Part shown: positions 12,861-32,480 of the stretch, piece by piece | Layout: every line of letters begins with the position of its first letter | Position numbering within the stretch: position 1 is the first letter of the stretch | NCBI GenBank assembly: GCA_038817485.1 | Contig: JAWAZL010000006.1 | Span: 1-58,302, forward strand | Length of the DNA: 58,302 nt | Direction: 5' to 3' | Origin: Nitrososphaerota archaeon | GTDB lineage: Archaea > Thermoproteota > Nitrososphaeria_A > Caldarchaeales > JAVZCJ01 | Notes under the pieces: generated by a model | The model's input: the letters and a program-made list of their open reading frames with translations, nothing else | What the model was told of the DNA's origin: nothing | The model's database searches: none | Program-made: the position numbers and the translations under genes

Positions 12861-13607
12861 ATGCTAACAATATTATTAATTGGACCAGCTGGAGCAGGAA
12901 AAACACTTTTATCAAAAAAATTGGCAGAATGGATGAGTAAAAATATGTATTTAAATGTAGGAATTGTCAATTTAGATCCAGGTATAGAAAATTTACCTTA
13001 TGAAGCCTCATTTGATATAAGAAAATATTTTACAATAAAAAGTATAATGAAGGAATTGAACCTTGGTCCAAATGGAGCATTTATTGAAGCAGCAAATAGA
13101 ATAGTTAAAATAGCTTCAAAAATTGTTAAAGAAATAGCAAACCTAAACCATGAATATATAATAGTAGATACTCCTGGACAAATGGAAATTTTTGTATTTA
13201 GAAATTTTGGACCAATAATATCAAAAGAATTTATTAAATATGGTCCAACAGAAGCAATTTTCCTAATCGATCCTGAAACAGCAGAAACAATTTCAGATAC
13301 AATAGTATTTCTTGGATTAAGTATAGCTACTAAACTTAGGCTTGGAATACCAGTTATACCAATATTAAATAAAATAGATAAAATTGATGAAGAAAAAGCT
13401 AAATTATTTAAAAATTGGAAAAATTTATATGAAAATATTTCAAAGGATCATGGTTTACTTTCGGAAATTTCAAAAGAATTATTAAAGATTTATATGAAAT
13501 ATATTCCTGAAACTTCTATAGCATTTGTTTCAGCAATTAATGGTGTAGGAATTGAATACTTATACGATAGAGTTAGAGAAGCTTTTTGTGAATGTGGAGA
13601 GATATAA
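12861..13607 (+). CDS. GPN-loop GTPase
   Basis: 248 residues of the archaeal GPN GTPase family (homologues of eukaryotic GPN1-3, RNA polymerase II assembly factors). Walker A is GPAGAGKT at residues 8-15. The GPN insertion motif is in LNLGPNGAFIEA. DTPGQME is the G3 motif and LNKIDK is G4. A TATA-like TATATTTTTAT near 12830 sits about 28 bases before the ATG, suggesting a leaderless transcript. It probably acts as a homodimer. Confidence 0.9.
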   Translation: MLTILLIGPAGAGKTLLSKKLAEWMSKNMYLNVGIVNLDPGIENLPYEASFDIRKYFTIKSIMKELNLGPNGAFIEAANRIVKIASKIVKEIANLNHEYIIVDTPGQMEIFVFRNFGPIISKEFIKYGPTEAIFLIDPETAETISDTIVFLGLSIATKLRLGIPVIPILNKIDKIDEEKAKLFKNWKNLYENISKDHGLLSEISKELLKIYMKYIPETSIAFVSAINGVGIEYLYDRVREAFCECGEI

Positions 13608-13651
13608 AGTATATAAATAATAGATACCATCATTTTAAAAGGTTTTGGGAT

Positions 13652-14134
13652 ATGTGGAAAAATATAATAATACATCCTGAAAAATGCACAGGTTGTCATT
13701 TATGTGAATTATATTGCTCTTTTCACCATTTTAAAATTAATAATCCATCAAGGTCTAGAATACATGTTATTAGAAGTGAACCATACATAGATTCTCCAAT
13801 ATTATGTATACAATGTGGTTTATGCATCGACTTTTGTCCAGTAGGAGCAATAATAAGGAATAAGAAAAATGGTGCAATAAATGTATTAATTGATAAATGT
13901 ATTGGATGTGCTCAATGCGTTTTTGTTTGTCCATATGGAGCTGCAACAATTGATCCAATAACAAAGAAAGCATTAATATGTGATTTATGCAATGGAGAAC
14001 CTGAATGTGTAAAAAATTGTCCAGAAAAAGTTTTAGAATACGTTGATGCTACAAAAGCAGTTTATTATAAGAATTTAATTATATCCAAATTATTAAAGAA
14101 AGAATCTATACCACTTGAACCATATCCTAAATAA
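13652..14134 (+). CDS. Polyferredoxin-type 4Fe-4S protein, partner of the aldehyde oxidoreductase
   Basis: 160 residues with four cysteine motifs: CTGCHLCELYC, CIQCGLCIDFC, CIGCAQCVFVC and CDLCNGEPECVKNC, enough for about four [4Fe-4S] clusters. This matches the HycB/AOR-associated electron-transfer subunits. It lies immediately upstream of the aldehyde ferredoxin oxidoreductase and should pass its electrons on. The frame is open from ATG 13592 inside the GPN gene. ATG 13652 is preferred because the family begins close to the first cysteine motif and a TATA-like TATATAAAT precedes it at about 13611. Confidence 0.88.
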   Translation: MWKNIIIHPEKCTGCHLCELYCSFHHFKINNPSRSRIHVIRSEPYIDSPILCIQCGLCIDFCPVGAIIRNKKNGAINVLIDKCIGCAQCVFVCPYGAATIDPITKKALICDLCNGEPECVKNCPEKVLEYVDATKAVYYKNLIISKLLKKESIPLEPYPK

Positions 14135-14144
14135 AGGTGGTTTT

Positions 14145-16061
14145 ATGAGTGAAAAAATTTTTGGTTATGCTGGGCAAATTCTTAGAATTGATTTAAGTAA
14201 AAAGAAGATTTTAAAAGAACCTTTAAGAAAAGATTTTATTAAAAAATATATTGGATGCACAGGTTATGCTGCTGCAATTCTATGGTATGAATTAAAACCT
14301 AAAATAGATCCTTTAAGCCCTAACAATAAAATAATTTTTTCAACTGGACCACTTACTGGAACATTTTGTCCTTGCTCAGGAAGTTATGAAATATGTTTTA
14401 AATCTCCTTTAACAAATGCATTTGGAGAATCCCGTTCAGGTGGAATATTTGGTCCTAAAATGAAATATGCAGGTTTTGATCATATAATAATTGAAGGGAA
14501 ATCTGATAAGCCTGTTTATATATGGATTAATAATGGAGAAGTAGAAATTAAAGATGCTCAACATTTATATGGAAAAACAGTTCATGAAACAACTGAAATA
14601 ATTTTAGAAGAAATTAAAGAACCGAAAGCATCGGTTGCATGTATAGGTCCTGCAGGAGAAAAATTGGTTAGGTTTGCAGCAGTTATGAATGATAGAGATA
14701 GAGCTGCTGGAAGATGTGGTGGAGGAGCAGTAATGGGCTCTAAAAATTTAAAAGCTATAGCAATAAATGGAGAAAAAGATATTGAAATTGCAAATCCGGA
14801 AAAATTTTATGAATTTGTTACAGAAGCTAAAAATGCCCTTCTTAAAAAAACTGCTTTAAGAAGGTTTGGAACAATTAATGCAATAACAGTTTTAAATGCT
14901 ATGGGAGCATTACCAACAAAATATGGTTATACTGGGTTTTTTGAAAGAGCTGAAGATGTTTCAAGTGAAAGATTATTGAGTAAATATTTAATAAAAAGGA
15001 GAGCATGTTTTGCATGTCCAATAGGTTGTGGAAGATATTCTGAAGTTAAACATGGAATATGGGCAACTCCACCTCATGAAGGACCTGAATTTGAAACAAC
15101 AGATATGCTTGGTCCATGGATAAATATAAGTAATTTAGAAGCAATAATAAAAGCAAATTATTTATGTAATAATTATGGATTGGATACCATTTCAACTGGA
15201 AATGTAATAGCATTTGCTATAGAATGTTATGAAAAAGGATGGATAAAAGAAGATTTAGTTAAAGGAATAAAGCTTGAATGGAATAATCCTGAAACTATGA
15301 TAGAATTAATAAAATTAATAGCTAAAAGAGAAGGAATAGGAGATTTATTAGCTGAAGGAGTTATGAGAGCAGCTGAAAAAATAGGGTATGGAGCACCTGA
15401 ACTTGCTCTTCATACAAAAGGGCTTGAAATGCCTGCTCATGATCCTAGAGGAGAAACAAGAATATTAGCAATAAAATATGCTGTAGAATATAGAGGAGGA
15501 TGTCATGTACATTCAGGGTTTCCAGGTTTATATGATAGAAGCCCAGAAAGTTTAAACGATTATGGTTTAAAAGAATTCGGATTACCATGGCCTCCAAAAG
15601 GTAAATTTATTGAAGAAGGGAAAGGTATAGCATATAGATTTTTTGCAATATTTGGTCAAATTCCAGAAATAATGGGTATGTGTCAATTTGCTTCAATGGG
15701 TTCTGAAGGTAATATGATAACTATTAAAGATTATGCAAAAATTTATTCTTCACTTACTGGAATAGAAATGGACGAATATGAATTAATGAAAATTGGTGAA
15801 AGAGTATATAATCTAAAAAGATGCTTTAATGTAAGAGAAGGTTTTAATAGGAAAGATGATAAACTTCCAAAAAGAATGTACGAACCAATAGCTACTGGTC
15901 CAGTAAAAGGGGAATGTGTTAAAAACTTAGATTTAATGCTTAATGAATTTTATGAATCAATGGGTTGGGATATTAAAACAGGGATACCAACTTTTGAAAA
16001 ACTTAAAGAATTAGGATTAGAAGATGTAGCTGAAGAGTTAAGGAAAAATTCAATATTTTAA
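14145..16061 (+). CDS. aor: Tungsten-containing aldehyde ferredoxin oxidoreductase family enzyme
   Basis: About 638 residues. Oxidises an aldehyde (or related substrate) with reduction of ferredoxin, using a tungsten bis-pterin and one [4Fe-4S] cluster. The N-terminal domain begins GYAGQILRIDLS. The cluster cysteines are CFACPIGC plus a later Cys in LKRCFNV. DPRGETR and the RCGGGAVMGSKNLKA segment match pterin-contact regions. The start is ATG 14145 with GGTGG ahead of it. The encoded polyferredoxin upstream and MoaD-like protein downstream form one operon. The exact substrate class (AOR, FOR, GAPOR or BamB type) cannot be settled from sequence alone. Confidence 0.92.
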   Translation: MSEKIFGYAGQILRIDLSKKKILKEPLRKDFIKKYIGCTGYAAAILWYELKPKIDPLSPNNKIIFSTGPLTGTFCPCSGSYEICFKSPLTNAFGESRSGGIFGPKMKYAGFDHIIIEGKSDKPVYIWINNGEVEIKDAQHLYGKTVHETTEIILEEIKEPKASVACIGPAGEKLVRFAAVMNDRDRAAGRCGGGAVMGSKNLKAIAINGEKDIEIANPEKFYEFVTEAKNALLKKTALRRFGTINAITVLNAMGALPTKYGYTGFFERAEDVSSERLLSKYLIKRRACFACPIGCGRYSEVKHGIWATPPHEGPEFETTDMLGPWINISNLEAIIKANYLCNNYGLDTISTGNVIAFAIECYEKGWIKEDLVKGIKLEWNNPETMIELIKLIAKREGIGDLLAEGVMRAAEKIGYGAPELALHTKGLEMPAHDPRGETRILAIKYAVEYRGGCHVHSGFPGLYDRSPESLNDYGLKEFGLPWPPKGKFIEEGKGIAYRFFAIFGQIPEIMGMCQFASMGSEGNMITIKDYAKIYSSLTGIEMDEYELMKIGERVYNLKRCFNVREGFNRKDDKLPKRMYEPIATGPVKGECVKNLDLMLNEFYESMGWDIKTGIPTFEKLKELGLEDVAEELRKNSIF

Positions 16062-16072
16062 CTTTTTAAAGC

Positions 16073-16372
16073 ATGATAAAAGAATTAAAAATGATGAAAA
16101 TAAAAATAATTTATGGAGCTCCAATTACTTCAATAACTGGAAAACATATAGAAGAAATATCCATTGAAAAAGGAATGAAACTATCAGAATTAATAAATAT
16201 CCTTATAAATAAGTATGGATTTAATTTTAAAAATATTTTATTAACAGAAAAAAATGAAATAAAGCCTGATGTATTACTTATACTAAATGGAAGAACTATA
16301 TCAAAGTTAAATGAAGAAGAAATAAATAATGATAGTATACTATCAATTACAGGAATAATTGGTGGGGGATAA
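16073..16372 (+). CDS. MoaD/ThiS-like ubiquitin-fold sulfur carrier
   Basis: 99 residues (shorter if the start is ATG 16091 or 16094) with a beta-grasp pattern and a C-terminus ending in IIGGG, as needed for adenylation and thiocarboxylation. MoaD provides sulfur for the pterin dithiolene of molybdenum/tungsten cofactor. Position right after the tungsten enzyme supports that job. In archaea such proteins can also serve as protein modifiers (SAMPs), so a second role is possible. The JAMM at 9998 could then process it. Confidence 0.82.
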   Translation: MIKELKMMKIKIIYGAPITSITGKHIEEISIEKGMKLSELINILINKYGFNFKNILLTEKNEIKPDVLLILNGRTISKLNEEEINNDSILSITGIIGGG

Positions 16373-17602: not shown

Positions 17603-17677
17603 TATATTTTCATTTCTTATTCCCTTATTGTTAAATAAAAATTTTTAAATTATAATTAAAAATATTACGTGTATTTC

Positions 17678-18193
17678 ATGTCTATTGAGAAGAAATACAT
17701 TAAAGAAAATTTAATAAAATGGTTAAAAAATGCAAGAAAAATTATTATAATGGGTGTTGGAAATCCTTTAAGAGGAGATGATGTAGTAGGATTAAAAATT
17801 GCTAAAAAATTGGAAAAATATTCTTCTAAGTATTTAAAAATAATTATTTCAGAAACTGTTCCAGAAAATTTCATTGGTCAAATAAGAAAATTTAAACCTT
17901 CCCATTTAATAATAATAGATGCTGTTGATTTTAAAGGAAATCCTGGAGATATAAGACTAATATTACCTGAAGAATTAAGCAAGGCTGGGATAATTTCAAC
18001 TCATACTTTACCATTATCACTTTTATCTAAATTTTTATATGAAAGTATGGGTATAAAAACAATAATTATTGGCATTCAACCAAAATCTATAGATTTTGGA
18101 TCTAATATCTCTCCAATAGTAGAAAAAACAATTATTAAAGCTACTAAAATTATTATAAATGTTTTAGTAAATCTAAATTTTATTAATTTTTAA
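17678..18193 (+). CDS. [NiFe]-hydrogenase maturation endopeptidase
   Basis: Peptidase of the HycI/HyaD/HoxM family that cuts off the C-terminal tail of the hydrogenase large subunit after nickel insertion. The signature GVGNPLRGDDVVG is intact, with downstream DAVDF and STHTLPL carrying the other two metal ligands. GTG 17669 is open, but ATG 17678 fits a TATA-like box at 17644-17655. The gene lies just upstream of the complex I-like operon, whose large subunit has the matching DPCxxC motif and a 30-residue tail. This supports a joint function. Confidence 0.88.
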   Translation: MSIEKKYIKENLIKWLKNARKIIIMGVGNPLRGDDVVGLKIAKKLEKYSSKYLKIIISETVPENFIGQIRKFKPSHLIIIDAVDFKGNPGDIRLILPEELSKAGIISTHTLPLSLLSKFLYESMGIKTIIIGIQPKSIDFGSNISPIVEKTIIKATKIIINVLVNLNFINF

Positions 18194-18521: not shown

Positions 18522-18869
18522 ATGCTGGGCGCTATAACCTCTCCTATAATTATTTTCATTTTTTCACTTTTTATTACAATTATTATATATGTATTATCTG
18601 GAAAAATTGCTCCTAATCCGCCTAAATCAAAAGATAAAATCTCTTCATATGCATGTGGAGAAGATGTTCCAATTGAAAAAGTTCCTGTTGTAATTCATTT
18701 ATTTGATTATGCTGCTCTTTTCATGGTTTTTGATATTGTTGCTATGATTCTAGTTTTATCTATGGGTTTTCCACCTGAAAATCCTTTTAAACCAATTTTA
18801 TTAACTCTTACATCAATTTATTGTTTTCTATTATTTATTGCATTATTTATTTTAAGAAGGAAAAGTTAA
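18522..18869 (+). CDS. nuoA: NuoA-like subunit
   Basis: Membrane subunit of about 115 residues with three helices and the subunit A signature SYACGEDVPIEK followed by FDYAALFMVFDI. NuoA/FpoA is normally found in complex I and F420H2 dehydrogenases but not in ordinary membrane-bound hydrogenases. TTG 18507 is also in frame, but ATG 18522 has a GAGG ribosome site. It is the first gene of a 12-gene operon on this strand. Confidence 0.9.
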   Translation: MLGAITSPIIIFIFSLFITIIIYVLSGKIAPNPPKSKDKISSYACGEDVPIEKVPVVIHLFDYAALFMVFDIVAMILVLSMGFPPENPFKPILLTLTSIYCFLLFIALFILRRKS

Positions 18870-18885
18870 AAAAGGTTGAAGTAAC

Positions 18886-19308
18886 ATGGGTATTATAAGT
18901 TGGGCTAGATCAAGAAGCCCTTGGATAGTGCATCTTTGTACAGGAGCATGTAATGCATGTGATATAGAAATTTTAGCAGCTTTAACTCCAAGATATGATT
19001 TAGAAAGGTTTGGTGTCCTTCTTAAAGGAAGCCCAAGACATGCGGATATATTCATTGTAACTGGTCCTATTACAAGACAAATGAAAGATAGAGTTGTTAG
19101 AATATATGAACAAATCCCTGATCCAAAATTTGTTGTTGCAGTAGGAACATGTACCATAAGTGGAGGAGCATTTAGGGGTTGTTATAATGTTTATGAAGGG
19201 CTAGATGCTGTAATTCCAGTAGATGCATATATTGCTGGTTGTCCAGTAAAACCAGAAGCAATAATTCAAGCTGTTGCAGCTCTTGTAAAAAAGATTAGAA
19301 GTGGTTAA
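18886..19308 (+). CDS. nuoB: NuoB-like / hydrogenase small subunit with CxxC proximal-cluster motif
   Basis: 140 residues. CNACDIE (Cys22, Cys25) and the later GTC (Cys89) and AGCP (Cys119) give the four ligands of the proximal cluster (N2 in complex I). The first motif is the hydrogenase form (CxxCDxE, as in Hyc/Mbh/Ech small subunits), not the CC pair of true complex I NuoB. This subunit passes electrons between the cluster chain of NuoI and the active site in NuoD. AGGT ribosome site before the ATG. Confidence 0.93.
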   Translation: MGIISWARSRSPWIVHLCTGACNACDIEILAALTPRYDLERFGVLLKGSPRHADIFIVTGPITRQMKDRVVRIYEQIPDPKFVVAVGTCTISGGAFRGCYNVYEGLDAVIPVDAYIAGCPVKPEAIIQAVAALVKKIRSG

Positions 19309-19310
19309 AA

Positions 19311-19772
19311 ATGAATGATGAAGAATTTTTAAATAAATTAAAAGAAGCTTTTAAAGAGAAAATAATAGAATCTTCTATACCTAGGAAAAATATAATCAAT
19401 ATAGTTGTTCCTAAAGAATCTTATAAAGAAGTTATTAAATTTATTGTTGAAAATTTCAATATCCCTCATATACAAACCATAACTGGAATAGATATGGGAA
19501 ATGAAATACAAATAATTGCACATTTAGGGAGAAGCACTACGATAAATGTTAAAACCTCTGTAGATAAAAATAATCCTGAAATAGATACTATTACTGATAT
19601 TATTCCAGGTGCAAGCTTTTATGAAAGAGAAGTGTATGATTTACTTGGTGTAAAATTCAGAGGTCATCCAAATTTGAAAAGAGTAGTTCTTCCTGAAAAT
19701 TGGCCAAAAGGAGTATATCCATTAAGAAAAGAGTATAAACCTGAGCATCCTAAACCTTTAAGAGGTGTATGA
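19311..19772 (+). CDS. nuoC: NuoC-like 30-kDa subunit
   Basis: 153 residues with the conserved C-terminal part YEREVYDLLGVKFRGHPNLK followed by LPENWPKGVYPLRKEY. Subunit C supports the catalytic module NuoBCD/I. It starts two bases after nuoB and overlaps the next gene by four bases. It is not fused to subunit D. Confidence 0.92.
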   Translation: MNDEEFLNKLKEAFKEKIIESSIPRKNIINIVVPKESYKEVIKFIVENFNIPHIQTITGIDMGNEIQIIAHLGRSTTINVKTSVDKNNPEIDTITDIIPGASFYEREVYDLLGVKFRGHPNLKRVVLPENWPKGVYPLRKEYKPEHPKPLRGV

Positions 19773-20962
19773 AAATGTCATCATTTACTGTACCAATAGG
19801 CCCACAACATCCAGCTCTTCCAGAGCCTATCCTTTTAAAATTGGAAGTTGAAGGGGAATATGTTATTGGAGTAGATGTGGATGTAAGCTATATGCATAGA
19901 GGAATAGAGAAAGCAATGGAGTATAGAAACTATATTCAAAATATTTATTTAGCTGAAAGAATATGTGGAATATGTAATGTTGCTCATACTATATGCTATA
20001 CTTTGAATGTTGAAAAACTTTATGATAAAGAAATCCCTCTTAGAGCTCAATATTTAAGAGTAATAATTGAAGAATTAAATAGAATTCATAGCCATCTTTT
20101 ATGGCTTGGAGTAGCTGGTCATGAAATAGGTTTTGATACATTGTTTATGTATGTTTGGAGAGATAGAGAAAGGGTTATGGATTTAATTGAAACAATAACT
20201 GGCAATAGAGTTAATACTGCTTATACAACGATTGGGGGAGTTAGAAGGGATATTACAAGCGATATTGAATATAAAATAAGAAAAACAATGGATATAGTTG
20301 AGGAGCGTACAAAATATTATAAAAGTGTTGCAGCAGCTGAACCAACAATACTTACTAGAACTAAAGAAGTAGGAATACTTAAAACTACAGATGCTGTTAA
20401 ACTTTGTGCTGTAGGCCCTCTTTTAAGAGCCTCGAATGTTAAACATGATGTGAGAGCAGATGCTCCTTATGCGGCTCATGATGAAGTACCATTCAATGTA
20501 ATAACTTATCCATACTGTGATGTTTTCTCAAGAATTTTAGTACGTGTAGATGAAACATTAGAATGTGTAAATATGATTAGATATTGTTTAGATCATTTAC
20601 CTAAAGGGCCTATAAGAATTAAGCTCCCTCTTAAACCTCCAAAAGGTGAAGCGATTACTAGAGTTGAAGCTCCAAGAGGAGAGCTTTTACACTATGTTGT
20701 ATCTGATGGAAGCGAAAAGCCTTATAGATATAAAGTTCGTACTCCAACATTAGCAAATATTCCAGCTTTATGTCGTATGCTTACTTCTAGTGGAGATTAC
20801 ATTGTTAAAATAGCTGATGTTCCAATAGCATATGCTTCTATTGATCCTTGTCTTTGTTGTACAGGTAGAGTACAAATAGTAGATATTGAAAAGAATAAAA
20901 AATGGATATGGTCATGGGAAGAGTTAAAGGAATATTCCAAAAAGGAATGGAAAAAGAGTTGA
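19769..20962 (+). CDS. nuoD: NuoD-like subunit with intact [NiFe]-hydrogenase cysteines
   Basis: 397 residues (or from ATG 19775). The fold is complex I subunit D/hydrogenase large subunit: GPQHP near the start and VNTAYTTIGGVRRDI in the middle. Both nickel-binding pairs are present: RICGIC (Cys66, Cys69) and DPCLCCTGR (Cys361, Cys364). In true complex I these are lost and a quinone pocket is found instead. After Arg367 comes a 30-residue tail, as in group 4 hydrogenase precursors that need cleavage by a maturation protease. The predicted reaction is ferredoxin-driven H2 formation or its reverse. Confidence 0.93.
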   Translation: MKMSSFTVPIGPQHPALPEPILLKLEVEGEYVIGVDVDVSYMHRGIEKAMEYRNYIQNIYLAERICGICNVAHTICYTLNVEKLYDKEIPLRAQYLRVIIEELNRIHSHLLWLGVAGHEIGFDTLFMYVWRDRERVMDLIETITGNRVNTAYTTIGGVRRDITSDIEYKIRKTMDIVEERTKYYKSVAAAEPTILTRTKEVGILKTTDAVKLCAVGPLLRASNVKHDVRADAPYAAHDEVPFNVITYPYCDVFSRILVRVDETLECVNMIRYCLDHLPKGPIRIKLPLKPPKGEAITRVEAPRGELLHYVVSDGSEKPYRYKVRTPTLANIPALCRMLTSSGDYIVKIADVPIAYASIDPCLCCTGRVQIVDIEKNKKWIWSWEELKEYSKKEWKKS

Positions 20963-20968
20963 TGAAAA

Positions 20969-21946
20969 ATGTTTGAAATAGAATTCGCATTAAAAATCCT
21001 TGAAATTTTCATTTTTCCTGGCTTTTTATTTATAGGGATTATCTCATTATTATATGAATGGATTGATAGAAAATTCTACGCAAAACTTCAAAATAGAGTC
21101 GGTCCTTTATATGCAGGACCATTTGGAATACTTCAACCTTTAGCAGATTTTATAAAACTTATTGCAAAAGAAGACATCGTACCAAAAGCAGCTGATAAAA
21201 CACTTTTCACTTTAACTCCAATATTCTCTTTCTCAATAATTCTTACAGCAACCCTTTTACTTCCAATAATAAATACTAGTGGAATTTTATCTTTTAATGG
21301 AGATATAATATTTGCTATTGCAATTATGACTTTATTTTGTATATTAGTTTTTTGTGCTGGTTTATCTTCAAATAATAGATTCTCAGCAGTTGGTGCTGAA
21401 AGAGCAGTATTACAATTACTTGGATATGAAATACCTTTAATGCTTTCAATAGTTGGTGTTGCATTGAATGTTGGATTTTTAAGGATTTCAGAAATAGTTA
21501 AATATCAATCAACACATCCTTGGCTTATATTTGGTCCGCAAGCATTAGGTTTTGCAATTTATGTTATTGCTGCTCAAGCTGAACTTGAAAGAATTCCTTT
21601 CGATATTCCTGAAGCTGAACAAGAAATTGTTGCTGGTTGGTTAACAGAATTTTCAGGTAGAAAATTAGCTTTATTTAGATTTGCTAGAGATTTAGAATTA
21701 GTTTATGTTTCTGGTTTAGCTGTAGCACTTTATCTTGGTGGCCCATTAGGGCCAGTCATACCTGGCTTAGAACCTCTCCTTTATACGATCTACTTCATAA
21801 TAAAAACTATTATTGTTTTATTAATTTTATCAACAATTAGAGCTTTATTTGCTCGTCTTAGAATAGATCAAATGATTAGTTTTTCATGGAATTATCTTCT
21901 TCCATTATCAGTTTTACAATTCTTTTTAGTTAGATTGGTGATTTAA
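20969..21946 (+). CDS. nuoH: NuoH-like membrane subunit
   Basis: 325 residues, about eight membrane helices. QNRVGPLYAGPFGILQPLAD and PFDIPEAEQEIVAGW are the classical subunit H loops that line the connection between the catalytic module and the ion pump modules. It corresponds to the hydrogenase membrane anchor HycD/MbhM as well. It follows nuoD with six bases between them. Confidence 0.95.
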   Translation: MFEIEFALKILEIFIFPGFLFIGIISLLYEWIDRKFYAKLQNRVGPLYAGPFGILQPLADFIKLIAKEDIVPKAADKTLFTLTPIFSFSIILTATLLLPIINTSGILSFNGDIIFAIAIMTLFCILVFCAGLSSNNRFSAVGAERAVLQLLGYEIPLMLSIVGVALNVGFLRISEIVKYQSTHPWLIFGPQALGFAIYVIAAQAELERIPFDIPEAEQEIVAGWLTEFSGRKLALFRFARDLELVYVSGLAVALYLGGPLGPVIPGLEPLLYTIYFIIKTIIVLLILSTIRALFARLRIDQMISFSWNYLLPLSVLQFFLVRLVI

Positions 21947-21947
21947 A

Positions 21948-22286
21948 ATGGCAATGTTTAAAGAATTATATAAACATTTATTTAAAAAGAGAGCTACAGT
22001 ATTATATCCATTTAAAGAAAGAGAATTGGTACACATTCCTGAAGGATATAGAGGGAAAATTTCTTTTCATAGAGATAAATGCATTGGTTGTGGGATATGT
22101 GCAACAGTTTGCACATCTGGAGCATGTGAAATGACTTCTGATGAGAAAGGTAAAAGGCCAATTTTCTATTTAGATCGTTGTACTTTTTGTGCTCAATGTG
22201 CAGAAAGTTGTCCAAAAAATGCTATTGAACTTACAAAAGATTTTGAGATTATAGCATTCGATAGAAGAACTCTTGTGGTGAAATAA
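21948..22286 (+). CDS. nuoI: NuoI-like two-cluster ferredoxin subunit
   Basis: 112 residues with CIGCGICATVCTSGAC and CTFCAQCAESCPKNAI, holding two [4Fe-4S] clusters that carry electrons from ferredoxin to NuoB. The spacing is normal for NuoI/FpoI. No NuoE, F or G genes are present, so an NADH input module is lacking and ferredoxin or another single-step donor is the likely partner. GGTGAT ribosome site. Confidence 0.93.
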   Translation: MAMFKELYKHLFKKRATVLYPFKERELVHIPEGYRGKISFHRDKCIGCGICATVCTSGACEMTSDEKGKRPIFYLDRCTFCAQCAESCPKNAIELTKDFEIIAFDRRTLVVK

Positions 22287-22287
22287 A

Positions 22288-22536
22288 ATGAATGATATAA
22301 TATTACATTTAGTATTAATATTCTTTTTATTATTGTTTGCTTTATTATCAATTGAATCAAAAGATTTAACTAAAGCTATTCTTTCATTTTCTATATTTAG
22401 TATATTTTTAGCAATAATTTTCTATATTTTAGGAGCACCGTATGTAGCCGTTTTTCAATTAGCTATTTATGCAGGTGCTGTAACAGTTCTATTCCTAGCT
22501 GCTATGCATACTATAAAAAGGAGGAGAATAGAATGA
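22288..22536 (+). CDS. nuoJ: NuoJ-like subunit, N-terminal half
   Basis: 82 residues with about three membrane helices; YVAVFQLAIYAGAVTVLFLA is the highly conserved NuoJ motif. It covers only the first part of NuoJ. The rest is encoded by the next ORF, which overlaps by four bases (ATGA-type overlap). A split subunit J is known from some Fpo and Mbh/Mrp systems. Confidence 0.9.
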   Translation: MNDIILHLVLIFFLLLFALLSIESKDLTKAILSFSIFSIFLAIIFYILGAPYVAVFQLAIYAGAVTVLFLAAMHTIKRRRIE

Positions 22537-22841
22537 GAATAGAAAAAATTTTCTCAATAATAATTGTAACTCTTTTATTAATAATAGCATCTTTTTATGT
22601 GATAGATTTTTCAAAATTTATTCCAATTCCGCAAAGTCTAGGAAACCCTCCTCTTGAAGAAAAACCATATTTCATTTGGACATATAGATCTATTGATGTT
22701 TTTATACAAGGTTTTATTGTATTTGCCTCTGCTGCAGCTATTGCTGCATTATTTAGGATCGAGAAAGGTGAAGGAGCACTAGAAGAAGCAGTTATTGAAG
22801 AACCTATTATTGAAGAAAAGGAGGAAGAAGAATATGAATGA
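22533..22841 (+). CDS. NuoJ-like subunit, C-terminal half
   Basis: 102 residues. An N-terminal helix, a loop with PQSLGNPPLEEK and a second helix (VFIQGFIVFASAAAIAALF) correspond to the second half of NuoJ or to MbhE-type proteins. The C-terminal tail is very acidic (IEEPIIEEKEEEEYE). Its last codons overlap the start of nuoK by eight bases. GGAG ribosome site before its ATG. Confidence 0.8.
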   Translation: MRIEKIFSIIIVTLLLIIASFYVIDFSKFIPIPQSLGNPPLEEKPYFIWTYRSIDVFIQGFIVFASAAAIAALFRIEKGEGALEEAVIEEPIIEEKEEEEYE

Positions 22842-23145
22842 TGTATTAAGTATATATTTAACTACTTCTATTTTACTTATAATACTAGGTTTTTATTGCA
22901 TTTCTTCTAAAAGAAATATGATTAAAACAATTATTGGAATAGAAATAATTACTTCAGCTGTAAATCTAAACTTTATTACACTTGGTATTTCAAAAAATGG
23001 TGTAGATTATTTTGCTCAATCAATTGTTATAATTTCTATTTCTATTGCTGCATGCATTGCTGCGATAGCTTTATCATTAATACTTAATGCTTATAGACAT
23101 TATGGAAGTATAGATTTAAGAAAATTAAGGAGGTTAAGGTGGTAA
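22834..23145 (+). CDS. nuoK: NuoK-like subunit
   Basis: 103 residues, three membrane helices with IGIEIITSAVNLNFI, the NuoK motif with the glutamate needed for proton transfer (membrane-buried Glu of the E channel). The preferred start is ATG 22834 with a GGAGG site; an earlier in-frame TTG at 22795 would add a charged tail that the family lacks. MnhC/MrpC is the closest antiporter relative. Confidence 0.92.
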   Translation: MNDVLSIYLTTSILLIILGFYCISSKRNMIKTIIGIEIITSAVNLNFITLGISKNGVDYFAQSIVIISISIAACIAAIALSLILNAYRHYGSIDLRKLRRLRW

Positions 23146-23147
23146 AA

Positions 23148-24674
23148 ATGTTAATTCTGCAACCTATAATTGTTTTATTAGGAGCAGCCGCTATAATTCC
23201 ATTAATTGATTTATTAAGTAAAAAAATAGGATTTGAGAAAATTAGGGATATTATTGCTATAGTTGCATTTTTAATAGCTTTTATTATTCTTTATAGCTTT
23301 TTTGGAAATCTTCCACAAAGTTTTTCAATAGATCCTTATGGCCCTCCACTTGGAGTTGAATTAAGAGTAGATAATCTTAGTTTATACATGGCAATCATAT
23401 TTTGTGGATTAGGATTGCTAGTTTCAATATATTCTATTAAATACATGGAAATTGATAGTGGATTAGATAAATATTATTCATTACTTTTAATTCTTGTAGC
23501 TGGAATGATTGGAGTAGCTTTTTCAAATGACTTCTTTAACTTATATGTTTTTTGGGAAATGATGTGTATAGCATCTTATACGCTTGTTTCCTTTAGAAAA
23601 TATAAATGGGAACCAGTTGAAGCAGGATTTAAATATTTAGTTATGAGTACTATTGGATCTTTAATTTCTCTATATGGTATTTCTCTATTATATGGTTTGG
23701 TAGGAACCTTAAACTTTACGCAATTACACTCAGCAATTGAAAAAATATATAGAAATGGCTCAGCTCCATTATCTCTCTTATATCTTATAATATGTATGAT
23801 AATTGTTGGATTTGGTGTAACAGCAGCAATGGTTCCATTACACACATGGTTACCTGATGCTCATCCTGCAGCTCCAAGCTCTATAAGTGCTATGCTTTCA
23901 GGAGTTGTTATAAAAACTGGAGTTTATGCTATGTTTAGAAGTTTATTTACAATATTCCAACCAAAAATATTTGATTTTGGAACAATTTTAATGCTTTTTG
24001 GAGTTTTAACAATTACTGTAGCTAATTTTATGGCTTTAATGCAAAAGGATATAAAAAGATTATTAGCTTATTCAAGCATTGTTAACATAGGTTATATACT
24101 TGTTGGAGGAGGAATAGGTGCCTATGTTTTAACTCATTATGGTTTAAAAGAAGCTTCAATTGCTGGAATAGCTATTATTGGATCATTATTGCATATATTA
24201 AATCATGCAATTAGTAAAGGACTACTCTTCTTATGCTCAGGATGTTTTACTCATGAAGCTAAAACTAGAGCAATTTCTAAGCTTGAAGGTATTGGTAAGA
24301 GAATGCCATTAAGTGGGCTATCTTTATCTATTGGATTATTTAATTTAGCAGGAATTCCTCCATTAAGTGGATTTTGGAGTAAGCTATTTATAATTCTAGC
24401 TGGTTTAAGCATTCCTGAAAATAATTTTATGTTAGCAATTTCCATAATTGTTATTTTAAATAGCATTTTTGCAGCTTCTTATTATTTATGGTTAACTCAA
24501 AGAATAATGTTAAAAAAGCCTACAGAAATAGTTGAAAAAGTTCATGAAGCACCTTTATCAATGGTATTTCCAATAATTGTTTTAGCAATATTATGTATTT
24601 TAATAACAATTAAATTGGATTTATTTATTAAAATTGTCGAATTAGCTTCTAATAATCTTTTAGGAGGTGTATGA
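23148..24674 (+). CDS. nuoN: NuoN/MrpD-type antiporter-like subunit
   Basis: About 508 residues, 14 or so membrane helices. The proton_antipo_M domain includes MVPLHTWLPDAHPAAPSSIS. The Glu of the TM5 region is in FWEMMCIASY and the Lys of TM7/8 in VVIKTGVYAMF. This is one of three antiporter-like subunits in the operon. GTG 23139 is in frame, but ATG 23148 follows an AAGGTGG site. N versus M type cannot be settled without a tree. Confidence 0.88.
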   Translation: MLILQPIIVLLGAAAIIPLIDLLSKKIGFEKIRDIIAIVAFLIAFIILYSFFGNLPQSFSIDPYGPPLGVELRVDNLSLYMAIIFCGLGLLVSIYSIKYMEIDSGLDKYYSLLLILVAGMIGVAFSNDFFNLYVFWEMMCIASYTLVSFRKYKWEPVEAGFKYLVMSTIGSLISLYGISLLYGLVGTLNFTQLHSAIEKIYRNGSAPLSLLYLIICMIIVGFGVTAAMVPLHTWLPDAHPAAPSSISAMLSGVVIKTGVYAMFRSLFTIFQPKIFDFGTILMLFGVLTITVANFMALMQKDIKRLLAYSSIVNIGYILVGGGIGAYVLTHYGLKEASIAGIAIIGSLLHILNHAISKGLLFLCSGCFTHEAKTRAISKLEGIGKRMPLSGLSLSIGLFNLAGIPPLSGFWSKLFIILAGLSIPENNFMLAISIIVILNSIFAASYYLWLTQRIMLKKPTEIVEKVHEAPLSMVFPIIVLAILCILITIKLDLFIKIVELASNNLLGGV

Positions 24675-24675
24675 A

Positions 24676-26802
24676 ATGAGTGAATTTATTTATCAAGCTT
24701 GGCTTTGTTGGATTTTCCCAATTTTAGGAGCCTTATTAACTCCTATATTAGCTAAAATTCATTCTAAAGCTAGAGATTATGGAGCAATTTTCTTTTCTTT
24801 ATTAGCAATGCTCTCAACAATTTCTCTAATTCCTCTACTTTTTGAGCATGGAATACATTGGCCAATAAATAATCAATTGGATTGGGTAAGGATTCCGAAT
24901 GCACCAATATTAAGTGAACTTAAAGTAGGAATTTTACTAGATCCATTAAGCATAATCATGGCGAATATTGTTGCTATAATTTCTTTTCTAATAATGGTCT
25001 ATTCATTAGCTTATATGCATGGAGACCCTGGTCTTACAAGATATTGGTTTTTCATGAATTTCTTTATAGGAAATATGCTATTGTTAGTAATGTCTGATAA
25101 TTTAATACAAATGCTATTTGGATGGGAAGGAGTAGGATTATGCAGCTATGGTTTAATTGGTTTTTGGTATAGAGATTCTAAAGAGGATTGGCTTAAGTGT
25201 TGGGTTGGAGAAGAACCTGAAGCATATCCTCCATCACATTGTGGAATGAAAGCTTTCATAACAACTAGAATTGGAGATATATCGATGCTTATAGGAATGT
25301 TTATGATACTTGCATTTAGTGGCACATTAAACTTTATAGAACTTCAAGAAGGAGCTATAAATAAAGTTCCTATTAATATATTGATTCCAGCTACTATTTT
25401 ATTATTTGGTGGCCCAATAGGTAAATCTGCTCAACTTCCATTAATGGAATGGCTTCCAGATGCTATGGCTGGGCCAACAACAGTTAGTGCACTCATACAT
25501 GCTGCTACAATGGTTAAAGCAGGAGTATATCTTGTTGGAAGAATTTTCCCAATAATTTATAAAGCTACATGGATTGGAGAATTTCCAAACGATTTAATAA
25601 TTTTCTTTTATGTAGTAGCTTGGATAGGTATTATTACAGCTTTTATAGCTGGTTCTCAAGCAATTGTTTCAAAAGAAATAAAGAAGGTTCTTGCATATTC
25701 AACTGTTAGCCAGCTTGGTTATATGATGACTGCTCTTGGAGTTGCAGGTTTAACTGCTGATTTTATAATAGGATATGTTGCAGGAGTTTTTCATTTAATG
25801 AGTCATGCATTATTTAAAGCTGCATTATTTTTATCTGCAGGAGCTATAATTCATGCATGTGAATCAAGATTTATGACAGATATGGGTGGATTAAGAAAGA
25901 ATATGCCAATAACTTTCTGGGTTACTCTATTAGCTGCTTTTTCATTAATGGGATTCCCATTCTTATTCAGTGGTTTCTGGAGTAAAGATATGATTCTTGA
26001 ATCTACTTTATTAGCTAATCAATATTTAATATTCTTATTAGCAGCTATAAGTGCTATTATAACAAGCTTTTATAGTATTAGAATGATAGGAATCGTATTC
26101 TTTGGAGAAAAAAGCCATCATTTGAAAGAACTTGAAAAAGAAGGGCACCATATTCATGAAGCTCCAAAAATAATGTGGATTCCTTATGCTTTACTTGTAT
26201 GTGGAACAATATTCTTTGGTATAATAGGACCATTTGCAAAAAGTTGGCTTGAAGAAACATTTCATGAATATTTAGGAGAAGCGATTATTTTCTCTAAATT
26301 GAGTAGTGCTGCTTCAGAAGAACTTTTATCATTAATTGTTCCAATAACTTCAATAATAGTTTTAGCTATAGGTGCAATTCCATCATACTACATATACGTG
26401 AAAAGAAGTATTGATATTAAAGGAATAATGGAACGTAATCCATTCTTAAATAATATTAGAGAATTTCTGTATAAGAGATACTATTTAAATAGATTTTATT
26501 ATAATTTCTTTGTTTATCCTTTAATAAACTTAAGTAAAGCGATATGGAGAAAAATAGAATTGAATATAATAGATAAATTCAATTATGTTTTAGCAAACTT
26601 TGTTGTAAGCTTTAGTAAATGGTCCTTAAGGGTTATAGAATTGTCCGGTATAGATAATTTCAATTATATTTTAGCTAGAGCTGGAGCTGCTTTTTGTGAT
26701 AAATTTAGGAGAACTCATACAGGAATATTAAACTATAATTTATTAGGGATTATGATAGGTATGATTATAATCCTTTTAATTATTAAAATCATGGTTATTT
26801 AA
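24676..26802 (+). CDS. nuoL: NuoL-like antiporter subunit
   Basis: About 708 residues. The Proton_antipo_N region starts near residue 80 (LDPLSIIMANIVAIISFLIM). The pump domain has MEWLPDAMAGPTTVSALIH and AATMVKAGVYLV, typical of NuoL. The C-terminal ~180 residues form the long lateral helix and last membrane span. It is the distal proton (or Na+) pump. GTG 24667 is in frame, but ATG 24676 follows AGGAGGTG. Confidence 0.93.
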   Translation: MSEFIYQAWLCWIFPILGALLTPILAKIHSKARDYGAIFFSLLAMLSTISLIPLLFEHGIHWPINNQLDWVRIPNAPILSELKVGILLDPLSIIMANIVAIISFLIMVYSLAYMHGDPGLTRYWFFMNFFIGNMLLLVMSDNLIQMLFGWEGVGLCSYGLIGFWYRDSKEDWLKCWVGEEPEAYPPSHCGMKAFITTRIGDISMLIGMFMILAFSGTLNFIELQEGAINKVPINILIPATILLFGGPIGKSAQLPLMEWLPDAMAGPTTVSALIHAATMVKAGVYLVGRIFPIIYKATWIGEFPNDLIIFFYVVAWIGIITAFIAGSQAIVSKEIKKVLAYSTVSQLGYMMTALGVAGLTADFIIGYVAGVFHLMSHALFKAALFLSAGAIIHACESRFMTDMGGLRKNMPITFWVTLLAAFSLMGFPFLFSGFWSKDMILESTLLANQYLIFLLAAISAIITSFYSIRMIGIVFFGEKSHHLKELEKEGHHIHEAPKIMWIPYALLVCGTIFFGIIGPFAKSWLEETFHEYLGEAIIFSKLSSAASEELLSLIVPITSIIVLAIGAIPSYYIYVKRSIDIKGIMERNPFLNNIREFLYKRYYLNRFYYNFFVYPLINLSKAIWRKIELNIIDKFNYVLANFVVSFSKWSLRVIELSGIDNFNYILARAGAAFCDKFRRTHTGILNYNLLGIMIGMIIILLIIKIMVI

Positions 26803-26817
26803 GAGGTGATATGGAAA

Positions 26818-28338
26818 ATGATAGATTCAGGACAATTTTTAATACAAGCAGTATTTGCACCACTAGTTTTTTCAGTAATAGCTTTAATAGCTGGAAAATA
26901 TTTAAAGAAATATACTGGAATAATCGTCGCTATATCCCTTTTGTATAGCACTATTTTGCTTGCAATAGTAATGGTTAGTCTTCCTATAGCTCCAGATGCA
27001 AAAATCGAAGCTAGATACAAATGGGCTCCATATGTAGGAGATTTTACTCTTGTAGCTGATGGAATAAGTACACCAATTGCTTTAACAATTGCTTTATTAT
27101 CTCTTGTAGTGGCTATATATTCTATACCATACATGGAACATGAACATGGTCTAAGCTCATATTTTGCTTTATACTCTCTGTATGCAAGTGGAATGATAGG
27201 TACTGTGTTAACAACAAATCTGGCAGCATTCTTCCTATTCTTTGAATTTATGTTAATACCATCATGGGCTTTAGTTGGAATATGGGGAACAGGACCAAAG
27301 GAAATGATAGCATTCAAATACTTTATGTTTACTGAAGCAGGTGCTTTATCTCTTTTAGCTGGAATAGTTGCAACATATTCTTTAGCAGGCACATTTGATA
27401 TCTTTGAAATTGCAAGTAGGGTTGCTGGAGTAGATTTAACATTGATAATTGCTATAGTAATAGCAATACTCATAGGTTTCTTTGTGAAAATGGCAGTGTT
27501 CCCATTGCATACATGGCTTCCAGATACTCATGCTGAAGCCCCAACTCCTATAAGTGCATTGTTATCTCCTGCAATGATCGGGATAGGAGGATATGCTGCA
27601 ATAAGAATAATATACTCTGCTTTTCCAAGAGTTTTAGATTCTTGGCCTTTCATGACTTCTTTGTCTATTTTAGCTTTAATTACAATGATTTATGGTGGAT
27701 TAATGGCTTTAGCTCAAGATGATCTTAAAAGACTTTTAGCTTATTCTAGCATTTCTCAAATGGGCTATTTGTTATTTGGAATATCTTCTCTTTCATTTAT
27801 AGGAATTGTAGGCTCAGTACTTCTTTATGTAAGCCATGGACTTTGCAAAGCAGTCCTTTTCATGGTTTCAGGGATTTTCATGCATGAATTTAAAACTAGA
27901 AGAATAAGCGATTTACGTGGATTAGCCAGTAAAATGCCTTATACAACAATTTTCTCTTTAATTAGTTTCTTAGGATTGGCAGGAGTCCCTCCATTACTAG
28001 GCTTTTGGGGAGAATTGTTTATATTTGCAGGCTCTATGTATACTGCTTTATCAAGTAGCACAGATTTTGTAAGAGCAGTAATTACTGCTATAGCTGTTAT
28101 AGCTGCTATTTTAACTGCAGGATATGGTTTATGGACTATTCGTAGAGTTTTCTTTGGTGAACCAAATGAACTTGTAAAAAATGCAAAAGAAGCACCAGCA
28201 TTAATGATTATTCCAATAGGAATATTAGCAACTCTTGCAGTAATCTTAGGTGTTTATCCAACAGCAATAACAGAAGTTATTAGTCCTACTATAGAAGCAA
28301 CTCTTAAAGCAATTGCTTGCATTGGCTGCGGCAAATAA
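26818..28338 (+). CDS. nuoM: NuoM-like antiporter subunit
   Basis: About 506 residues with FFEFMLIPSWALVGIWG and PLHTWLPDTHAEAPTPISAL followed by LAYSSISQMGYLLFGI, the normal NuoM motifs, and the key Glu and Lys in place. GTG 26806 is also in frame; ATG 26818 is preferred for its GAGGTGAT site. It ends the operon: its stop codon abuts the stop of lysS, which is on the opposite strand. Confidence 0.94.
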   Translation: MIDSGQFLIQAVFAPLVFSVIALIAGKYLKKYTGIIVAISLLYSTILLAIVMVSLPIAPDAKIEARYKWAPYVGDFTLVADGISTPIALTIALLSLVVAIYSIPYMEHEHGLSSYFALYSLYASGMIGTVLTTNLAAFFLFFEFMLIPSWALVGIWGTGPKEMIAFKYFMFTEAGALSLLAGIVATYSLAGTFDIFEIASRVAGVDLTLIIAIVIAILIGFFVKMAVFPLHTWLPDTHAEAPTPISALLSPAMIGIGGYAAIRIIYSAFPRVLDSWPFMTSLSILALITMIYGGLMALAQDDLKRLLAYSSISQMGYLLFGISSLSFIGIVGSVLLYVSHGLCKAVLFMVSGIFMHEFKTRRISDLRGLASKMPYTTIFSLISFLGLAGVPPLLGFWGELFIFAGSMYTALSSSTDFVRAVITAIAVIAAILTAGYGLWTIRRVFFGEPNELVKNAKEAPALMIIPIGILATLAVILGVYPTAITEVISPTIEATLKAIACIGCGK

Positions 28339-30843: not shown

Positions 30844-31644
30844 TCATGGAATACTTAAAATAAAACTTTTAATAATAATTATTATGAATGTTATTATCAA
30901 AGCTATACTTAAAAATTTAATTAATAAAAACATATAATTTTTATCTGCTTTTTCGAATTTTATTTTTGAAAAAATTTTTGAAATTTTTAATAAAATATAT
31001 TTTTTAAAAGAATTAGGAAAATATTCTATATTATTAATTTCCTTTAAAAAATATTTATTCACATCATTATCATTTATCTTATAATTTTTATCAACTTTTA
31101 AAGCATCTTGATTAGAATCTATATCTATTATATGTCTTAAATCAAGCGTATCCATTGCATATATAGTACTTTCTAAAAGTTTTGACTTTCTTATTCCAAT
31201 AGTAGTAGGTACAGTAATTACTCTATCATTTTTTCCAATTCTAAATATTTTAAATTTTATATCCATAATTTCTTTTGTTTTACTATATAATAATGGATCA
31301 ATAACTAAAGCTACTGCTTTAGGATAAAGTTTTTGATAAATTTTTTGAGTAGAAATATCTGTTCCTGAAAGAAATACACCTAAACCTGGATGAGAATGAT
31401 ACCAACCAACAATAGTTAATCCTTTTTTTTCTTTTTGCAATTTTTCAGCAATTTGTGCTTGAATTTCCTCATTTAATTCTACAAATCCTTGCTTTCCATA
31501 TTGTTCTCCAGTTACTGCATCCCATATTTCTAAAACTTGTCCTTGCATTTTCCCAATAAGTAATCCTATTACTTCTCTTTCTAAATTTGTTAAAGAATGT
31601 TTTAATATTTTACCTAATGCAAGAGGATAAATTCTTGCTTTCAA
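30844..31644 (-). CDS. Rpn11-like JAMM deubiquitinase with C-terminal membrane anchor
   Basis: 266 residues. The MPN+ domain (1-150) has Glu24 in REVIGLLIG and HSHPGLGVFLSGTD (His83, His85, Ser93, Asp96), very close to eukaryotic Rpn11, including the VGWYHSHPG context. Related archaeal enzymes process pro-Ubl and remove Ubl from targets. Unlike a simple JAMM, it ends with a hydrophobic helix (LIKFLSIALIITFIIIIIKS, about 241-264), so it is expected to be membrane-bound with the catalytic domain in the cytoplasm. TTG start; divergent from the Ubl gene. Confidence 0.93.
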   Translation of the reverse strand: MKARIYPLALGKILKHSLTNLEREVIGLLIGKMQGQVLEIWDAVTGEQYGKQGFVELNEEIQAQIAEKLQKEKKGLTIVGWYHSHPGLGVFLSGTDISTQKIYQKLYPKAVALVIDPLLYSKTKEIMDIKFKIFRIGKNDRVITVPTTIGIRKSKLLESTIYAMDTLDLRHIIDIDSNQDALKVDKNYKINDNDVNKYFLKEINNIEYFPNSFKKYILLKISKIFSKIKFEKADKNYMFLLIKFLSIALIITFIIIIIKSFILSIP

Positions 31645-31737
31645 GTTTAGCCACTTTTATTAATTTAAATAAATAAAAACATAAATTAATATATTTATCC
31701 TTAAATTAATTTAAATTAATAATTAAGGGGTAGGAAA
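31645..31737. promoter_or_regulatory. Divergent promoter between Rpn11-like protease and Ubl genes
   Basis: 93 bases, nearly all A/T, shared by the two operons of the modifier system. TATA-like elements: TTAATATATTTAT at about 31687-31699 facing right, about 40 bases before the Ubl ATG, and TTTAAATAAATA near 31665 facing left. The Ubl gene has AAGGGG as ribosome site. The repeated AATTAATTTAAATTAA at 31703-31722 is partly self-complementary and could be an operator, but is too AT-simple to be sure. Confidence 0.55.
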
Positions 31738-32458: not shown

Positions 32459-32480
32459 GTTTATTTGAGGATATTAATAA

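What the first reader, a model, noticed from the sequence alone, without database searches (positions are those of the whole stretch)
18522..28338. A complete 11-subunit-type complex I-like operon that kept an active [NiFe]-hydrogenase centre
The operon encodes A, B, C, D, H, I, split J, K, N, L and M in complex I-type order, including NuoA, which ordinary group 4 hydrogenases lack. Yet NuoD has all four nickel ligands (Cys66, Cys69, Cys361, Cys364) and NuoB has the hydrogenase-type CxxCDxE. In true complex I the position of RICGIC is occupied by quinone-site residues. This reads as a hybrid between membrane-bound hydrogenases and complex I, a candidate for the form that gave rise to complex I or a separate lineage with four pump modules on a hydrogenase.
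Basis: partly seen in the sequence, partly recalled or inferred. Interest (0 to 1): 0.9.

Follow-up and report, generated by a model that had tools for sequence, protein, structure and literature searches.

The report
Complex I-shaped hydrogen-making membrane enzyme
This hot-spring-type archaeon carries a membrane enzyme built almost exactly like the first enzyme of our own respiratory chain, but its core still makes hydrogen gas; the operon is real and informative, though enzymes of this kind were reported in 2018 and 2021.

Summary
Bases 18522-28338 encode a tightly packed 12-gene operon (A B C D H I J1 J2 K N L M) with a HycI maturation protease upstream. NuoD keeps all four nickel cysteines, the MBH-type catalytic glutamate (E19) and a HycE-like cleavage tail. 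NuoB has the hydrogenase CxxCDxE. NuoA is genuine: its family profile matches only complex I ND3/NuoA chains in the PDB. The complex is a mosaic: B, D, J and N are closest to Mbh-type hydrogenases; A, H, L and M to complex I. D falls among [NiFe] hydrogenases, never inside quinone-reducing complex I. Best reading: a ferredoxin-driven, H2-evolving, ion-pumping group 4 hydrogenase (4g/Hfo type). The novelty claim fails: Loh et al. 2021 described the same 11-subunit hydrogenase ('Hfo') and argued it bridges to complex I; Hua et al. 2018 noticed CxxC in nuoD in this lineage. New here: NuoA-bearing [NiFe] clusters in at least 60 of 80 named loci across archaea and many bacterial phyla, a YACGE loop signature, half-NuoA/MbhI-like intermediates, and outgroup-rooted trees in which complex I arises from inside these hydrogenases (not significant: AU p 0.15-0.44).

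The parts
17669..18193 (+). HycI-type [NiFe] hydrogenase maturation endopeptidase
   Evidence: TIGR00142 hycI 127 bits, above cut-off 119; PF01750; conserved upstream of orthologous operons
18522..18869 (+). NuoA (ND3-like), loop motif YACGED
   Evidence: PF00507 27.4 bits over cut-off; profile of 39 relatives matches only ND3/NuoA chains in PDB, best E 9e-9; three-helix AlphaFold model, pLDDT 85; the only PF00507 match in the genome
18886..19308 (+). NuoB/MbhJ small subunit with hydrogenase-type CNACDIE proximal-cluster motif
   Evidence: best PDB match MbhJ 164 bits versus 127 for the best quinone-reducing complex I-type homologue; CxxCDxE in hydrogenase-type rows, CC type in complex I
19311..19772 (+). 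NuoC/FpoC subunit
   Evidence: NF040611 FpoC 97 bits
19769..20962 (+). NuoD-type [NiFe] large subunit; RICGIC (19958-19975), DPCLCC (20843-20860), proton-relay Glu19, C-terminal extension after Arg367
   Evidence: HycE 270 bits, MbhL 264, Nqo4 241; AlphaFold pLDDT 84, top PDB fold match FHL HycE
20969..21946 (+). NuoH with complex I-type acidic loop (FDIPEAEQEIVAGW)
   Evidence: best PDB matches NuoH 180 and Nqo8 177 bits, MbhM 120, HycD 84
21948..22286 (+). NuoI, two [4Fe-4S] cluster subunit
   Evidence: TIGR01971 and related
22288..22536 (+). J1: first half of NuoJ, MbhD-like
   Evidence: PF13244 MbhD and PF00499; PDB MbhD 40 bits versus 17 or less for complex I J-type chains
22533..22841 (+). 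J2: presumed second half of NuoJ (MbhE position)
   Evidence: position and conservation in relatives; no family or PDB match of its own
22834..23145 (+). NuoK
   Evidence: PF00420 84 bits
23139..24674 (+). antiporter-like subunit in N position, MrpD/Mbh-type
   Evidence: NF006240 351 bits; NuoN TIGR01770 241, below cut-off
24667..26802 (+). NuoL with C-terminal extension
   Evidence: TIGR01974 513 bits, above cut-off 407.5
26806..28338 (+). NuoM
   Evidence: TIGR01972 328 bits, above cut-off 263.8
13592..14134 (+). 4Fe-4S ferredoxin-like protein, possible electron carrier
   Evidence: Fer4 families
14115..16061 (+). aldehyde:ferredoxin oxidoreductase, likely source of reduced ferredoxin
   Evidence: PF01314 437 bits, PF02730 274 bits; same arrangement in the sister genome G001
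16073..16372 (+). small MoaD/ThiS-like protein ending in GG (inferred)
   Evidence: no Pfam match; named from position and from the Azospirillum cluster, where an annotated MoaD/ThiS gene follows AOR

Best explanation
[quoted passage not shown] Reduced ferredoxin, probably from the neighbouring aldehyde oxidoreductase, gives electrons to the [4Fe-4S] clusters of I, then to the single cluster of B, then to the Ni-Fe site in D, where protons become H2 with Glu19 as likely proton relay. The energy released is passed through the loops of D, H and A into a charged axis that drives ion export by H/J/K and the antiporter-like subunits N, L and M. HycI cuts the D tail after Ni insertion. Shown: genes, order, ligands, catalytic glutamate, maturation motif, homology of each subunit (J2 by position only). 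Inferred: ferredoxin as donor, direction towards H2, ion pumped, coupling path.
For: Four Cys ligands, Glu19 and His73 in 61 of 61 hydrogenase-type D rows, none of the complex I rows with the set. D C-terminus DPCLCCTGR|VQIVDIEKNK aligns residue by residue with HycE DPCYSCTDR|MTVVDVRKKK, with a HycI gene next door and HypD in the genome. B hydrogenase-type. No NuoF NADH module in the genome; only one NuoA. Complex I-type A, H, L, M. AOR and ferredoxin genes upstream; an Azospirillum plasmid links ferredoxin-AOR-MoaD directly to an Ech-type hydrogenase. Wolframiiraptor, same order, needs tungsten and is modelled as AOR to ferredoxin to Mbh to proton motive force (PMC9246946).
Against: No expression, activity or structure data. 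The AOR block is separated from the operon by a GTPase gene on the other strand and lies upstream only in the sister genome G001 among the relatives examined. The quinone biosynthesis gene set was not tested. J2 has no family match. The middle residue of the L2 motif (DPCLCC) is Cys instead of the usual Ser/Ala/Thr, though shared with close relatives.
Confidence: 0.8

Rival explanations
1. The same enzyme normally runs backwards: it spends the ion gradient to reduce ferredoxin with H2, as proposed for Bathyarchaeial Hfo.
For: Loh et al. 2021 propose this direction for termite-gut Bathyarchaeia (PMC7886697); group 4 enzymes are reversible.
Against: The neighbourhood here offers a ferredoxin-reducing AOR and a fermentative setting. 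Presence of a Wood-Ljungdahl pathway was not tested.
Confidence: 0.2
2. A quinone-reducing complex I with leftover hydrogenase residues.
For: Gene order and A, H, L, M are complex I-like. Fpo-like D proteins do keep one Cys of each pair.
Against: All four ligands plus Glu19 and the HycI tail are present; quinone-site His38 and Tyr87 of Nqo4 are Pro18 and Gly67 here. D is on the hydrogenase side in every tree.
Confidence: 0.03
3. Evolution: a patchwork made by joining complex I membrane genes onto an Mbh-type hydrogenase, rather than a form from which complex I descends.
For: Subunits differ in closest solved relatives: B, D, J1, N Mbh-like; A, H, L, M complex I-like.
Against: The same linked set occurs in at least 60 of 80 named loci over archaea and bacteria. 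The concatenated D+B+H and D+B+H+C+I trees and the D tree place the rows alike.
Confidence: 0.25

Closest known systems
Hfo, the Fpo-like 11-subunit [NiFe] hydrogenase of Bathyarchaeia (Loh et al. 2021, PMC7886697)
   Same: Same 11 subunits in complex I-type order, [NiFe] motifs kept, no NADH or F420 module; already argued to be closer to complex I than Mbh.
   Different: The Bathy-6-type clusters seen here (e.g. L110, L112, L128, L130) have fused C-D, no C-terminal tail and J as a single longer gene; the window has separate C and D, a tail with HycI, a split MbhD-like J and an MrpD-like N.
CxxC-bearing nuoD cluster of Aigarchaeota bins GMQ_10 and JZ_10 (Hua et al. 2018, PMC6053391)
   Same: Same archaeal lineage; near-complete nuo set with MrpC/MrpD-like genes in place of NuoK/NuoN and CxxC in NuoD.
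   Different: Reported in one sentence and a supplementary figure; sequences not compared here.
Mbh-Mrp hydrogenase of Wolframiiraptor gerlachensis (PMC9246946)
   Same: Same order; Ni cysteines, AOR/ferredoxin model, group 4.
   Different: Described as 10 subunits and likened to P. furiosus Mbh; NuoA not mentioned in the passages read.
P. furiosus MBH (group 4d; PDB 6CFW)
   Same: Catalytic module and J1 closest; same ligands and Glu21.
   Different: MBH has no full NuoA, only MbhI with the NuoA-like TM1 and loop (PMC7684303).
Fpo/Nuo complex I
   Same: Gene order, NuoA, NuoH, NuoL, NuoM.
   Different: No Ni ligands and no maturation tail in complex I; quinone-site residues differ.

Membership tests
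Group 4 [NiFe] hydrogenase | L1 and L2 motifs with four Cys ligands | tested here: met
   RICGIC and DPCLCC aligned with HycE and MbhL
Group 4 [NiFe] hydrogenase | Small subunit with CxxC...E proximal cluster motif | tested here: met
   CNACDIE
Group 4 [NiFe] hydrogenase | Maturation by protease and Hyp proteins | tested here: met
   HycI adjacent and cleavable tail; HypD in genome; other Hyp genes not tested
[quoted passage not shown]
Group 4 [NiFe] hydrogenase | H2 turnover | not testable with these tools
   no biochemistry available
Hfo / subgroup 4g 11-subunit hydrogenase | A B C D H I J K L M N all in one cluster, no NuoEFG or FpoFO | tested here: met
   no PF10589 in genome; FpoF/FpoO not searched genome-wide
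Hfo / subgroup 4g 11-subunit hydrogenase | HydDB class 4g | not tested
   HydDB not available here
Complex I (quinone-reducing Nuo/Fpo) | Quinone-site His38 and Tyr87 (Nqo4 numbering) | tested here: not met
   Pro18 and Gly67
Complex I (quinone-reducing Nuo/Fpo) | Full NuoA subunit | tested here: met
Mbh (group 4d) | MbhI-type subunit instead of full NuoA | tested here: not met
   window has full three-helix NuoA
Ehr (hydrogenase-related, Ni-less) | Loss of Ni ligands | tested here: not met
   all four present

The most novel reading that the evidence does not exclude
NuoA-bearing [NiFe] hydrogenases are the paraphyletic stock from which complex I arose, with archaeal Caldarchaeal/Thermoproteota forms like this one among the nearest living relatives: complex I would be a hydrogenase that lost nickel, with Fpo-type D proteins still keeping one Cys of each pair.
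Probability: 0.3. Interest if true: 0.75.

Novelty: new member of a known kind. Interest (0 to 1): 0.42.

Why it matters
How a hydrogenase became respiratory complex I is a long-standing question. Enzymes with full complex I membrane architecture and an intact Ni-Fe site are the nearest testable stand-ins for the intermediate. This operon adds a compact archaeal example, in an order that already has an enrichment culture, and the survey here shows the kind is much broader than the Bathyarchaeia in which it was named. It allows a direct test of what NuoA does when there is no quinone.

Tried and rejected
AU test on the 71-row concatenation did not finish; reduced sets were used instead. None of the AU tests rejects NuoA-hydrogenase monophyly or complex I outside all group 4, so no strong evolutionary claim is made. 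Fold search with the NuoA monomer was inconclusive: ND3 chains among the top hits but E 0.46 or worse; identity rests on profile matches. Fold search with D puts FHL HycE first but complex I 49 kDa chains score nearly as well, so fold alone does not discriminate. J2 could not be assigned by any library. The regex for R.CGIC marked L104 as Ni-less; inspection shows HICGIC with all ligands. The claim 'four pumps' was rejected. Four proteins first counted as NuoA (L079, L116, L122, L126) are half-NuoA/MbhI-like and were counted apart. Named Methanosarcina Fpo, Ehb/Eha and methanogen Ech sequences could not be reached, so group 4 sampling in the trees is partial. HydDB and Marreiros et al. 2013 were not readable here.

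Full report
Check of the observation. The window encodes, all on the + strand, HycI (17669-18193) and then A (18522), B, C, D, H, I, J1, J2, K, N, L and M, ending at 28338. From A onward neighbouring genes overlap by up to 8 bases or are at most 16 bases apart, so this is an operon. Family searches name every subunit except J2. The D subunit carries Cys66, Cys69, Cys361 and Cys364. In the alignment with solved structures these columns coincide with the Ni ligands of E. coli HycE and P. furiosus MbhL. In Thermus Nqo4 the first pair is replaced by Asp86 and His89, with the quinone-site Tyr87 at the window's Gly67 and His38 at Pro18. Across 61 hydrogenase-type and 16 complex I-type D sequences all four Cys are invariant in the former and never present together in the latter. 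Glu19, the equivalent of MbhL Glu21 that Yu et al. [quoted passage not shown] B has the hydrogenase-type CNACDIE. The D tail DPCLCCTGR|VQIVDIEKNKK matches HycE DPCYSCTDR|MTVVDVRKKK, the HycI substrate (established knowledge of HycI), and hycI is the upstream gene. HypD is in the genome; NuoF is not.

NuoA is real. The single sequence passes the Pfam cut-off, and a profile of 39 hydrogenase-linked relatives matches ND3/NuoA chains of complex I and no other PDB protein, best E 9e-9. It is the only NuoA in the genome. Hydrogenase-linked NuoA has a loop signature Y-A-C-G-E (Ala 81%, Glu 100% of 74) where complex I has Y-E-C-G (Glu 88% of 16). Reference group 4 clusters (E. coli hyc and hyf, Azospirillum hyf and Ech-type, Butyrivibrio Ech-type) have no NuoA. 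M. jannaschii and T. maritima have D homologues but no PF00507 match.

Anatomy. By closest solved relatives the complex is a mosaic. D: HycE 270, MbhL 264, Nqo4 241 bits. B: MbhJ 164, best quinone-reducing complex I-type chain 127. J1: MbhD 40, complex I J-type chains 17 or less. H: NuoH 180, Nqo8 177, MbhM 120, HycD 84. L and M exceed the curated NuoL and NuoM cut-offs; N is MrpD/Mbh-like. There are therefore three antiporter-like pumps, not four. AlphaFold of D (pLDDT 84, pTM 0.84) gives FHL HycE as the first PDB match, with complex I chains close behind.

Relatives. In the same order, the sister genome G001 (96% identity in D) and genomes in two other families carry the operon with all ligands, mostly in the same order with HycI upstream; some have the J-J-K-N-L-M half divergently transcribed. 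Many of these genomes also have a separate Ni-less complex I, whereas G000 does not. A scan of named genomes gave 80 loci at 46-70% identity: Bathyarchaeota, Asgard groups, Methanomassiliicoccales, Methanomethylicota, Omnitrophota, Elusimicrobiota, Bacillota, Acidobacteriota, Aminicenantota, Chloroflexota, Planctomycetota, Spirochaetota, Bipolaricaulota, Armatimonadota and others. In 60 a full NuoA lies in the cluster and in 4 a half-NuoA; several of the remaining 16 are truncated contigs. The half-NuoA proteins (L079, L116, L122, L126) join the NuoA TM1 and YACGE loop to a lateral-helix segment, and their profile matches MbhI (E 4.6e-6). This agrees with the structural equivalence of MbhI and Nqo7 loop 1 reported by Yu et al. 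2020.

Phylogeny. D alone, D+B+H and D+B+H+C+I all put the window with the NuoA-bearing [NiFe] hydrogenases, and complex I as one group on its own branch (in the quick D tree two Ni-less D-like rows join the complex I side). When NuoA-less hydrogenases or group 3 hydrogenases are the outgroup, complex I comes out inside the NuoA-bearing set (for example 98/94, 98/93 and 96/96 for complex I plus archaeal NuoA-hydrogenases). In the 33- and 38-row sets the window's own group is among its nearest neighbours (82/90, 92/88). AU tests do not reject the alternatives: NuoA-hydrogenases as one clade p 0.148 (D+B+H), 0.444 (five genes), 0.415 (D with outgroup); all Ni group 4 as one clade p 0.311. Outgroup and NuoA-less branches are long, so attraction is possible. 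Fpo-like D proteins (L203-L206, L209) keep the first Cys of each pair, a remnant consistent with hydrogenase descent.

Function. The likely route is ferredoxin to I, B and D, with H2 made at Ni-Fe and the energy passed through the loops of D, H and A to the pumps. The AOR and ferredoxin-like genes at 13592-16061 fit a ferredoxin source. Azospirillum lipoferum AZO_p4 links ferredoxin-AOR-MoaD directly to an Ech-type hydrogenase. Wolframiiraptor, same order, is tungsten-dependent and is modelled as AOR to ferredoxin to Mbh (PMC9246946). Donor, direction and ion remain inferred.

Known or new. Loh et al. 2021 (PMC7886697) described Hfo, an 11-subunit Fpo-like [NiFe] hydrogenase in Bathyarchaeia, with similar clusters in Pyrodictium delaneyi and Methanomethylicus, and concluded that it is a closer link to complex I than Mbh. 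Hua et al. 2018 (PMC6053391) noted CxxC in the nuoD of near-complete nuo clusters in Aigarchaeota bins. Asgard complex I-like group 4 hydrogenases are in PMC11291895. The window operon is therefore a new member of a known kind, with local differences (separate C and D, cleavable tail, split MbhD-like J, MrpD-like N). The breadth of NuoA-bearing hydrogenases, the YACGE signature and the half-NuoA forms are additions that I did not find stated in the papers read. Placement of the window in Caldarchaeales (Aigarchaeota) is inferred from its ubiquitin operon and kin, not from a named record.

Noticed in passing
window 13592-16372; L165 818-10442: 4Fe-4S protein, AOR and a small MoaD/ThiS-like gene upstream of the hydrogenase; Azospirillum lipoferum plasmid AZO_p4 has ferredoxin-AOR-MoaD directly joined to an Ech-type hydrogenase and hypA.
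   Followed up: partly
L005 7458-13062 (G000 contig C13): Second group 4 [NiFe] hydrogenase in the same genome: B, I, H and fused C-D with all ligands, no A/J/K or antiporter subunits, next to an HdrB-like CCG protein (PF02754) and a 4Fe-4S protein; resembles the HdrB-linked Drh/Ehd complexes.
   Followed up: partly
window 30844-33647: Ubiquitin-like system: JAB protease, ubiquitin-like protein, E2 and a ThiF/E1 protein with a C-terminal ubiquitin-like domain, as known from Caldiarchaeum.
   Followed up: partly
L079 1191-1526, L116 2446-2772, L122 4160-4492, L126 4427-4741: Half-NuoA proteins: NuoA TM1 and YACGE loop joined to an HTG-containing lateral-helix end; their profile matches MbhI of MBH. 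Possible intermediate between NuoA and MbhI.
   Followed up: partly
L203-L206, L209: Fpo-like D proteins keep the first Cys of both Ni-ligand pairs (RLCY..., D-x-C...), a remnant of hydrogenase origin.
   Followed up: partly
L054, L062, L085: Hydrogenase clusters B-C-D-I (HycI detected in each locus) with no NuoH, NuoA or pump genes detected within about 10 kb; possibly without a membrane part.
   Followed up: no
L122 467-2500, L153: Ni-less 668-678 aa D-like proteins; the L122 one lies beside A/H/N/K/J homologues. They group with complex I in the first tree and may be a separate Ni-less lineage.
   Followed up: no
L106, L124, L125, L131: Hermodarchaeota-type [NiFe] D genes with no recognised complex partners nearby.
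   Followed up: no
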